From the NCBI GenBank assembly GCA_009602725.1, contig WELB01000013.1, positions 223,429 to 249,258 on the forward strand: a DNA stretch of 25,830 bases, read 5' to 3'. Both the position numbers and the translations under genes were made by a program. The notes beneath the pieces were generated by a model. That model searched no databases, had not been told where the DNA came from, and was given only the letters and a program-made list of their open reading frames with translations. This DNA comes from Spirogloea muscicola (Eukaryota; Streptophyta; Zygnematophyceae; Spirogloeales; Spirogloeaceae). This document shows positions 3,014 to 6,000 of the stretch, piece after piece (within the stretch, counting starts at the first letter, position 1; each line of letters starts with the position of its first letter).

Positions 3014-6000
3014 GTCATGCATGACGAAAACTTGCTCATGAGGGTTTGCCTTACATCCTCTTCCTTGTGGCTCTGATACTACTGGCAATTGGTAAAGTTA
3101 CTTCTCTACTCCCTAGTAAAGAAACTTCACTAGCGCCTGGTAGAGCTGAATCTGCGGTGCACGCATGCTCAGAAGGGTGTAATCAAGGACTCACAAGCCA
3201 CCTGGGGATTGTCTGACGTCCTGGTGAGAGGCTTATGTATACCTGATAAGCTTGACCTGGTATGCATGCCACAGGATAATGGCAGCTCTTTGACAAGAGA
3301 GTCAAGTGCTGATGGGCGTCAAAGTGAAGTGGCTCTGGAGGAGACACCTCATGAGGGAGGAGGGTGGGAAGACAGCATCGATGTTGGCCTCTTCAGTGAC
3401 TGGTGGGGAGAAGGAAATGATTGGGTAACTCCCGGAGTAGGGGGCGGAGCTTTGCTGGCCAACTCCATGCTGACTGCCAGACAGCTCATAGTGACTGGAG
3501 GAAGGATGCGAGGCAGATCGTCACCCGCGGTTCAAGCGCCGTCCCAGCAAATAGGTCCCGACTTAACAGGCAGGGTGACTGGGACTAAGGCTAAAAGGGT
3601 AGAGGCATTGCCAGCTGCAATTGAAGCAGCCCTACAGGTGAACAAATACCAGATAGATTCTATAGAAGATGAAGAACCCAACTTGGGAAGTGTCCAAGCA
3701 GGTGAGGAGGTGCAGAGCGCAGCCGATAAGCAGGAGACAAGTTATACCATTCAAGTGGAGGCAAAGCAGAAGGAAGTTGACGACCTTTTGCACTTGAAAG
3801 AAACGTCGCAAACAACAACAAATGCAGTGTCAGAACTTCTACAGAAGCTTGTCAGTGGACTTTCTCGTGTTGGACAAGTCTTGCAGGTATGCTGTGCATG
3901 CAGTACTTGGAAGCAGAGAAGAGCTCGTATGCAAGCCAGGCAAGTATAGCAAGATGGCATGTTGTCTCTCAGAAGTAAGTTTCGAAAGAAGAAGTTGTGC
4001 TGAATAAGCTCAAGTCTTTGGTGTGCAGCTTCCCAGGAAAACACTAGAGAGATGGACAAATCAGCACACTCCTGCTGACATGCTAGAGGAGGAGGATGAA
4101 GTGGAAGATTATGATAATGAGCAGATTAACTATGGGGATGGGCAGGACAGTGAGAAAGGAGCCAAAGCAATGCAGTCTATAAGGAAAGATCTGCTTATTG
4201 TGAGTGCCCCATGATGTCCCTGATTGCTGCCTGCTTCATCAGTTCAGTCCTTCTTGCATCTCCTGTCTGTTGTTGCACAGTGACGGTAAACTCATACTGT
4301 AGAACAACTGTTGTGTCACATCAGAAAATCATGAAGGTTATGTGCAGGTAAAAAGTTGTGTCATATTAGAAGGTCATGAAGGTCATCTGCAGGTGAAAAC
4401 AGGCAGAAAATAATATAGGTAATTTTCAATATGCTGAAGACATAGACCTGATATGATCATTCTTCTGAAGTCAGGGTCAGTTGCTGAGGCTAGCTTGTGG
4501 AGCGCGTGGCCCGCTTCCACACTCGTTGCCTGTCCTTTCAGCGCAGCTGGCAAAGCTTGGAGTAAATCCCACTGTGCCAGGGTGCCTATTTAGATCTCTG
4601 TTTATCTGCTTATGATGGCCTTGTTGCTTTTGTGACGCTTACATAAGTGGATTGTGAGTTACGTGCAGTGCACACGCAGAGAAAGTGCAGTGTCTGATTG
4701 CAAACTCCTGCTTGAATATGTGCCAGCTATTTCCACAATGGACAAGGGACCTCTTGGCATTTAGGCCACAGCTTTTTGACCACATCTTTCGAAGAGCTTT
4801 CCGTAATTCCGTGAAGGAGGTCGCCAGCATCTCGGAACCGTCTGTAAGTCAGATACCACTGAGAAAGGCGCAGGGTCCAGGATTTAGGGTTTAGGGTTTA
4901 GGGCAAGCATCTCAGCTGCGCAATCACAGAGCAGATATGTGTGAATGTAATGATGTATTGCAAATTCATGCAGACTCGGTGGGCAGTAAGTCGCTTCTGT
5001 GAATGCAAAGCCTGAAAGTGTGCATTGCAAGCCTTGAAAGTATGCAGCACAAGCATCTCTGTGCAGTCACTGAGCAAAAATTTGTGCATGCAATGGTCTG
5101 CAACTTCATGCAGACTCGGTGGGCTGTAAGTCGCTTCTGGACCGCAAAGCCTGAAAGTTTGCAAGGAGATGCGAGAAGTCCCACTGCTTCTTCGAGATAC
5201 CTTTCAGACTTCGAGGAAATATCTCTACTAGGTTAGTAACTGCAGAAGAGCCTTCATGTGCTTTCAGATCTACTTTCTGATACAGCAGCACTTCTTCAAC
5301 GCCTATGCTCCTAAGGTTCTTCTTAGGAAACTACAATGTATGTCAAAGTAAGCCCTGACAAACTTCCTCTGCGACCATAAATCTTAGCAGGAAGAGGAGG
5401 CTTTGGTTCTGTCCTACTATGTGTCAACAAGCTTGATGGACGAAAATATGCTGTTAAGAGAATACCACTTAAGGAGAAGAGCCCCCACCTCAGCTCAAAG
5501 ATCTTAAGGCAAGGCTTCAAATTCTCCTTATACTATCAAACACATCTAGTCTACTGCATAATATTAGTTAGTGATAGGAATCTAGGTTTGTAGCCTTGTT
5601 ACCTGCTTGCCAACAGTTATGAAGGAAAAGGTAACTTATGGATGTCCGAGTCATATAAAGAGCCCGGAGTCAAGCTTTGGCACACGCAATTATGGAGCTC
5701 AGAGTTCTTGCGACTCATCTCATCATACTGTGAATATTTCAGGGAGGTCGCCACCCTGTCCAGATTGCAGCACCATCATGTAGTGCGCTACTACCAGGTT
5801 ATGAAGCTTCACAGGAGCCCTTTTTGTAGTCCATGTAAAGCGCTTCACCATATCCTCTGGAATGTCCTCTAATGATGGACTGTATGGAAGGTGTGCTTCG
5901 GCATGGAATGTCAAAGTCAACGACTTGAATTTGTCCGCTGCATCGTGCAGGCATGGATAGAGAAAGCAGCTCGAAACAATGGACCAATAGTAGACGGATC

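What the first reader, a model, noticed from the sequence alone, without database searches (positions are those of the whole stretch)
4883..5165. Telomeric repeat insertion beside a duplicated partial exon inside GCN2
Three exact TTTAGGG units sit directly at the left end of a roughly 140-bp tandem duplication that copies the acceptor and start of the exon at 5114. This pairing looks like the scar of a double-strand break repaired with telomerase-added or captured telomeric DNA plus local duplication. Finding it in an intron of a conserved gene gives a dated, readable repair event.
Basis: partly seen in the sequence, partly recalled or inferred. Interest (0 to 1): 0.72.

Follow-up and report, generated by a model that had tools for sequence, protein, structure and literature searches.

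The report
Telomere-repeat scar in GCN2 intron
A short run of telomere-type DNA sits against an old, degraded copy of an exon start inside an intron of a stress-response kinase gene; it looks like an ordinary DNA-repair scar of a kind described in mammals, and the data at hand cannot date it or prove that it arose in one event.

Summary
Three exact TTTAGGG units (4883-4903) abut, with no gap, an imperfect duplication (4904-5024 against 5050-5163; 100 of 121 columns identical) that copies the intron end, acceptor and about 50 nt of the GCN2 exon at 5114. The run is far beyond chance. The 25 nt between the copies are mostly a partial third copy. Copy 2 is the native one; copy 1 is a decayed pseudo-exon that runs into a stop, though its acceptor is still identical.

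The repair-scar reading is reasonable and of a known kind: short interstitial telomeric sequences at healed breaks, sometimes with duplications. Three parts of it are weak. The run lies outside the duplication, not between the copies, so staggered-break filling does not explain it. No flanking base is in register with the repeat. Nothing is dated: the duplication is old (intronic Jukes-Cantor distance 0.175), and the run could be the same age or younger (P = 0.16 for no change in 21 bp at equal age).

No relative with this intron was found and no genome is held, so the empty site is untested. I file it as a probable new member of a known kind, of modest interest.

The parts
4844..5113 (+). GCN2 intron, 270 nt, phase 0 at both ends (exon ...CCGTCT|gtaagt ... 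ttcatgcag|ACTCGG...)
   Evidence: splice sites inferred from GT-AG ends and frame, no transcript seen. An acceptor ending at 5047 would also keep the frame open
4883..4903 (+). three exact TTTAGGG units (interstitial telomeric run; 4879-4903 if one mismatch is allowed)
4904..5024 (+). copy 1 of the duplication: intron tail, acceptor and exon start, decayed
4974..5012 (+). pseudo-exon start in copy 1, reading [13 protein letters not shown] and then a stop (stop codon 5013-5015); GTAAGT at 4986
5025..5049 (+). 25-nt filler between the copies, mostly a partial third copy of the unit's last 20 nt
   Evidence: (family D2)
5050..5163 (+). copy 2, the native one: intron tail, acceptor and first 50 nt of the exon
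5114..5233 (+). GCN2 exon reading TRWAVSRFW...[14 protein letters not shown], start of the kinase domain
   Evidence: its later part matches GCN2 chains of the PDB

Best explanation
A break-repair scar in an intron of a eukaryotic GCN2 gene. Most likely the break lay between what are now 4882 and 5050, and one error-prone repair inserted the whole stretch 4883-5049: captured or telomerase-made telomeric DNA, then a copy of the adjoining intron tail and exon start made by strand invasion or template switching, then a stuttered re-copy of the last 20 nt. The native exon (copy 2) went on being used and copy 1 decayed. Shown here: the run, the duplication, the partial third copy, and that copy 1 cannot encode the exon. 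Inferred: the break, the single event, the source of the telomeric bases.
For: The run is not chance and is no part of a general 7-mer microsatellite background. It abuts copy 1 with no gap. The 25-nt filler is a further copy of the unit's end (0 of 1000 shuffles), as stuttering template use would give. Removing 4883-5049 leaves a plain 103-nt intron with the junction CGCAGGGTCCAGGA|CAAGCATCTCTGTG. Interstitial telomeric insertions with duplications are described: 6 of 130 rodent, 4 of 25 primate and 3 of 66 horse loci, with 2 of 66 horse loci having deletion, addition and duplication together (passages).
Against: No empty site was seen. The run lies outside the two copies, not at the copy-to-copy junction. 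No base is in register with the repeat at either edge. The sequence left of the run does not resemble that left of copy 2 (586 and 657 of 1000 shuffles score as high), so nothing shows how far the duplication once reached. Local duplications are common in this window without telomeric DNA. A single exact 21-bp run beside an 18% intronic divergence is compatible with a later, separate insertion (P = 0.16 at equal age).
Confidence: 0.5

Rival explanations
1. Two separate events: an ordinary tandem duplication of the acceptor region, and later (or earlier) an independent short telomeric insertion whose end processing removed the left edge of copy 1, so that the two now abut.
For: Local duplications without telomeric DNA are frequent here: 17 pairs less than 1.5 kb apart at E up to 1e-3, of which this is 1 and 13 lie in the array at 23.8-25.6 kb; another 45-bp tandem pair lies at 4310-4399. 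The run has no mismatch in 21 bp while the intronic part of the copies differs at 10 of 64 compared bases. Deletion is the commonest change at such insertions: 65 of 130 rodent and 13 of 25 primate loci.
Against: Abutment with no gap must then be a coincidence or the result of an unseen deletion. P for an unchanged run of equal age is 0.16 to 0.25, so the age argument is weak.
Confidence: 0.36
2. A functional element: the TTTAGGG run acts as a telo-box binding site, or copy 1 acts as a decoy or poison acceptor (or 12-nt microexon) that tunes GCN2 splicing.
For: Two overlapping telo-box words lie in the run and nowhere else in the window. Copy 1 keeps 20 identical nt across the acceptor and reads into a stop after 13 codons; GTAAGT follows 12 nt after its acceptor. 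The 41-nt core is more alike than the rest (2 of 41 against 12 of 73 mismatches, Fisher P = 0.08).
Against: Constraint on copy 2 alone predicts the same pattern: exonic divergence 4 of 50 is about half the intronic 10 of 64, though that difference is itself not significant (P = 0.26). In the plant genomes surveyed telo boxes are enriched in 5' UTRs, not introns (passages). No transcript was seen.
Confidence: 0.08
3. Chance or slippage: an ordinary 7-bp microsatellite that happens to spell the telomere unit, or an assembly error.
For: The run is short, and the organism and its telomere unit are not known.
Against: No other exact triple of a 7-mer occurs in the window and the Markov expectation is 1.6e-8 or less. 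The copies differ at 21 of 121 columns, which an assembly duplicate would not.
Confidence: 0.06

Closest known systems
Short interstitial telomeric sequences (short-ITSs) of rodents, primates and horse (PMC2246262, PMC7215372; passages seen)
   Same: Short exact telomeric run at an internal site, in an intron, next to a local rearrangement; introns hold 31% of human short-ITSs, and duplications occur at a minority of loci.
   Different: 3 exact units (3.6 with one mismatch) against the papers' arbitrary floor of 4; the run is outside the duplication; no in-register bases; no empty orthologous locus; plant-type unit.
Telo boxes, short interstitial telomere motifs of plants (PMC3022908; passages seen)
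   Same: Plant-type telomere words inside genes; proposed there to come from telomerase acting on free 3' ends.
   Different: Telo boxes are single 8-mers enriched in 5' UTRs; this is three tandem units in an internal intron. Binding or regulation was not tested.
Templated insertions of polymerase-theta type end joining (recalled; only a search listing seen)
   Same: A filler copied from adjoining sequence, with stuttering.
   Different: A copy of about 120 nt seems long for that pathway (recalled); pathway not testable here.

Membership tests
[quoted passage not shown]
   3 exact units at 4883-4903, 20.9 kb from the right end and 4.9 kb from the left end of the window; the chromosome position is unknown
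short-ITS inserted at a healed double-strand break | at least four units (search threshold that the authors call arbitrary) | tested here: not met
   3 exact, 3.6 with a mismatch; threshold from passages
short-ITS inserted at a healed double-strand break | unit equals the organism's telomere repeat | not testable with these tools
   no genome held, organism unknown; TTTAGGG is reported for Coccomyxa and Chlorella (passages)
short-ITS inserted at a healed double-strand break | empty orthologous site in a relative | tested here: inconclusive
   no relative found: viral contigs and genome contigs; neither is a collection of eukaryote genomes
short-ITS made by telomerase | flanking bases in register with the repeat (31 of 40 horse loci) | tested here: inconclusive
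   A precedes the first unit where G is expected and C follows the last where T is expected: no base in register; the ancestral site is unknown and the A could be a later change
short-ITS with duplication from a staggered break | telomeric run lies between the two copies (inferred from the staggered-break model) | tested here: not met
   the run is at the outer left edge of copy 1; a filler of another kind lies between the copies
telo box | AAACCCTA / TAGGGTTT word | tested here: met
   at 4885 and 4892, none elsewhere in the window
telo box | located in the 5' region of the gene and bound by a telomere-motif factor | not tested
   the run is in an internal intron just before the kinase domain; binding cannot be tested here

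The most novel reading that the evidence does not exclude
One repair event joined telomeric DNA with a templated copy of a splice acceptor and exon start, and so planted in GCN2 a second acceptor that is still intact. Copy 1 would then be a repair-born decoy: used as an acceptor it ends the protein after 13 codons, or with the GTAAGT at 4986 it gives an in-frame 12-nt microexon (TRWA). Break repair with telomeric DNA would thus be a source of new alternative splicing.
Probability: 0.07. Interest if true: 0.55.

Novelty: new member of a known kind. Interest (0 to 1): 0.25.

Why it matters
Sequence-level cases of telomeric insertion with adjoining duplication were, in the passages that I saw, drawn from mammals; my searches for interstitial telomeric sequences together with green algae or Chlorella gave listings of 5 and 2 papers with no such locus named in title or shown abstract. 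If relatives show an empty site, this locus would be a clean case with a plant-type repeat and would show how a repair scar can plant an extra splice acceptor in a conserved gene. As it stands it is a single, undated scar.

Tried and rejected
Looked for relatives that carry the intron: the search for related loci with a GCN2 kinase query in viral contigs (3 stretches matched a pattern, none confirmed) and genome contigs (39 matched, none confirmed); exact pattern of the 29-nt acceptor core in viral contigs (0) and genome contigs (0). These are not collections of eukaryote genomes, so the absence says little.

Tested whether the duplication reaches left of the telomeric run: no (586 and 657 of 1000 shuffles score as high). 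Tested whether the filler matches the sequence right of copy 2: no (604 of 1000). Tested whether the intron matches anything else in the window: apart from itself and its two mutual copies only a 15-nt match at E 0.83.

Considered selection on copy 1: the conserved core is suggestive (P = 0.08) but is explained by constraint on copy 2. Considered staggered-break filling: rejected, because the run is not between the copies. Considered assembly duplication: rejected, because the copies are 17% different by column.

Considered naming the organism: not possible with certainty. A green alga is my guess from the repeat type, the intron style and G+C content; no call shows it.

Full report
What is there. 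The window's left part holds a split gene on the + strand. A query of its kinase exons, joined by eye, has eIF2-alpha kinase GCN2 chains as its best matches in the PDB (best E 6.8e-62), and Pfam finds the protein kinase domain in two frames. The intron in question runs 4844-5113 (270 nt), phase 0 at both ends. Its ends are inferred: GT...AG, open frames on both sides, and an exon whose later part, [14 protein letters not shown], aligns with GCN2 of the PDB. The first residues of that exon (TRWAVSRFW) are not covered by that match, and an acceptor ending at 5047 would also keep the frame open, so 5113 is likely and not proven.

The telomeric run. TTTAGGG stands three times in a row at 4883-4903, 3.6 copies at 4879-4903 with one mismatch. 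It is the only exact triple of a 7-mer in the window, and its Markov expectation is 1.6e-8 or less. The unit occurs nowhere else on the + strand; CCCTAAA occurs once, at 2952. TTTAGGG is the telomere unit reported for Coccomyxa and Chlorella (passages), but the organism of this window is not known and no genome is held.

The duplication. 4904-5024 aligns with 5050-5163: 100 of 121 columns identical, 14 mismatches, 7 gap columns; score 132 against at most 29 in 1000 shuffles. It begins at the base after the telomeric run. Between the copies lie 25 nt, of which most repeat the last 20 nt of the unit once more (0 of 1000 shuffles; family D2). Copy 2 runs on into the exon and so is native. Copy 1 keeps the acceptor but reads [13 protein letters not shown] and then a stop.

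Age. The intronic part differs at 10 of 64 compared bases (Jukes-Cantor 0.175) and the exonic part at 4 of 50 (0.085). The exonic value is about half the intronic one, as expected if copy 2's exon is held by selection and only copy 1 drifts there; the difference alone is not significant (P = 0.26). On that scale a telomeric run of equal age would stay unchanged over 21 bp with P = 0.16 (0.25 with the overall distance), or with at most one change over 25 bp with P = 0.36 (0.50). The run may be younger, but the data do not require it, and there is no clock.

Mechanism. In a plain tandem duplication the only new junction is between the copies; the left edge of copy 1 is old sequence. The telomeric run is at that left edge, so it is not where staggered-break filling would put it. 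Two histories fit. In the first, the whole of 4883-5049 is one insertion: telomeric DNA, a templated copy of the neighbouring sequence, and a stuttered re-copy. In the second, an ordinary duplication and a separate telomeric insertion abut because the insertion removed the copy's left end. The stutter and the abutment favour the first slightly. The frequency of local duplications in this window (17 pairs at E up to 1e-3 within 1.5 kb, 13 of them in one array at 23.8-25.6 kb) and the clean run favour the second slightly. If break sites in a 270-nt intron were random, abutment with no gap would be a matter of a per cent or two (my rough arithmetic, not a call), but a deletion at insertion would produce it automatically.

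Telomerase. In mammals 31 of 40 informative horse loci have flanking bases in register with the repeat (passage). Here the base before the first unit is A and the base after the last is C, both out of register. A later change of G to A could hide an in-register AGG. The test is inconclusive and gives no support.

Splicing. Copy 1 carries an acceptor identical to the native one over 20 nt and a GTAAGT 12 nt further on; the native copy has the same GTAAGT inside its exon. Use of the copy-1 acceptor would end the protein; use of both sites would give a 12-nt in-frame microexon. No transcript was available, and the conserved core is explained without selection on copy 1.

Known or new. Short interstitial telomeric sequences inserted at breaks, with a minority of duplications (6 of 130 rodent, 4 of 25 primate, 3 of 66 horse loci) and with 31% of human ones in introns, are described in PMC2246262 and PMC7215372 (passages only). 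Their floor of four units is not met here; the authors of the second paper call it arbitrary. Plant telo boxes are described in PMC3022908 (passages). This locus is at most a new member of the first kind.

Noticed in passing
17549-18117, minus strand, with further exons probably up to about 19400: A RAD51/DMC1 recombinase gene (Pfam Rad51 in three frames); a 70-residue stretch matches DMC1 chains best (E 3.1e-25), RAD51 chains closely behind.
   Followed up: partly
23798-25628: Array of diverged direct repeats, 13 of the window's 17 close duplicate pairs; no Pfam family was reported there on either strand.
   Followed up: no
13858-13956, minus strand: C/D-box snoRNA snR60/Z15 family (RF00309, 47.2 bits), the only Rfam match at gathering score.
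   Followed up: no
4310-4399: Another tandem duplication, 45 bp twice at 84%, in a non-coding-looking stretch of the same gene, without telomeric units.
   Followed up: no
16338-16394 and 16762-16818: A 57-bp direct repeat 424 bp apart, 91% identical with gaps.
   Followed up: no
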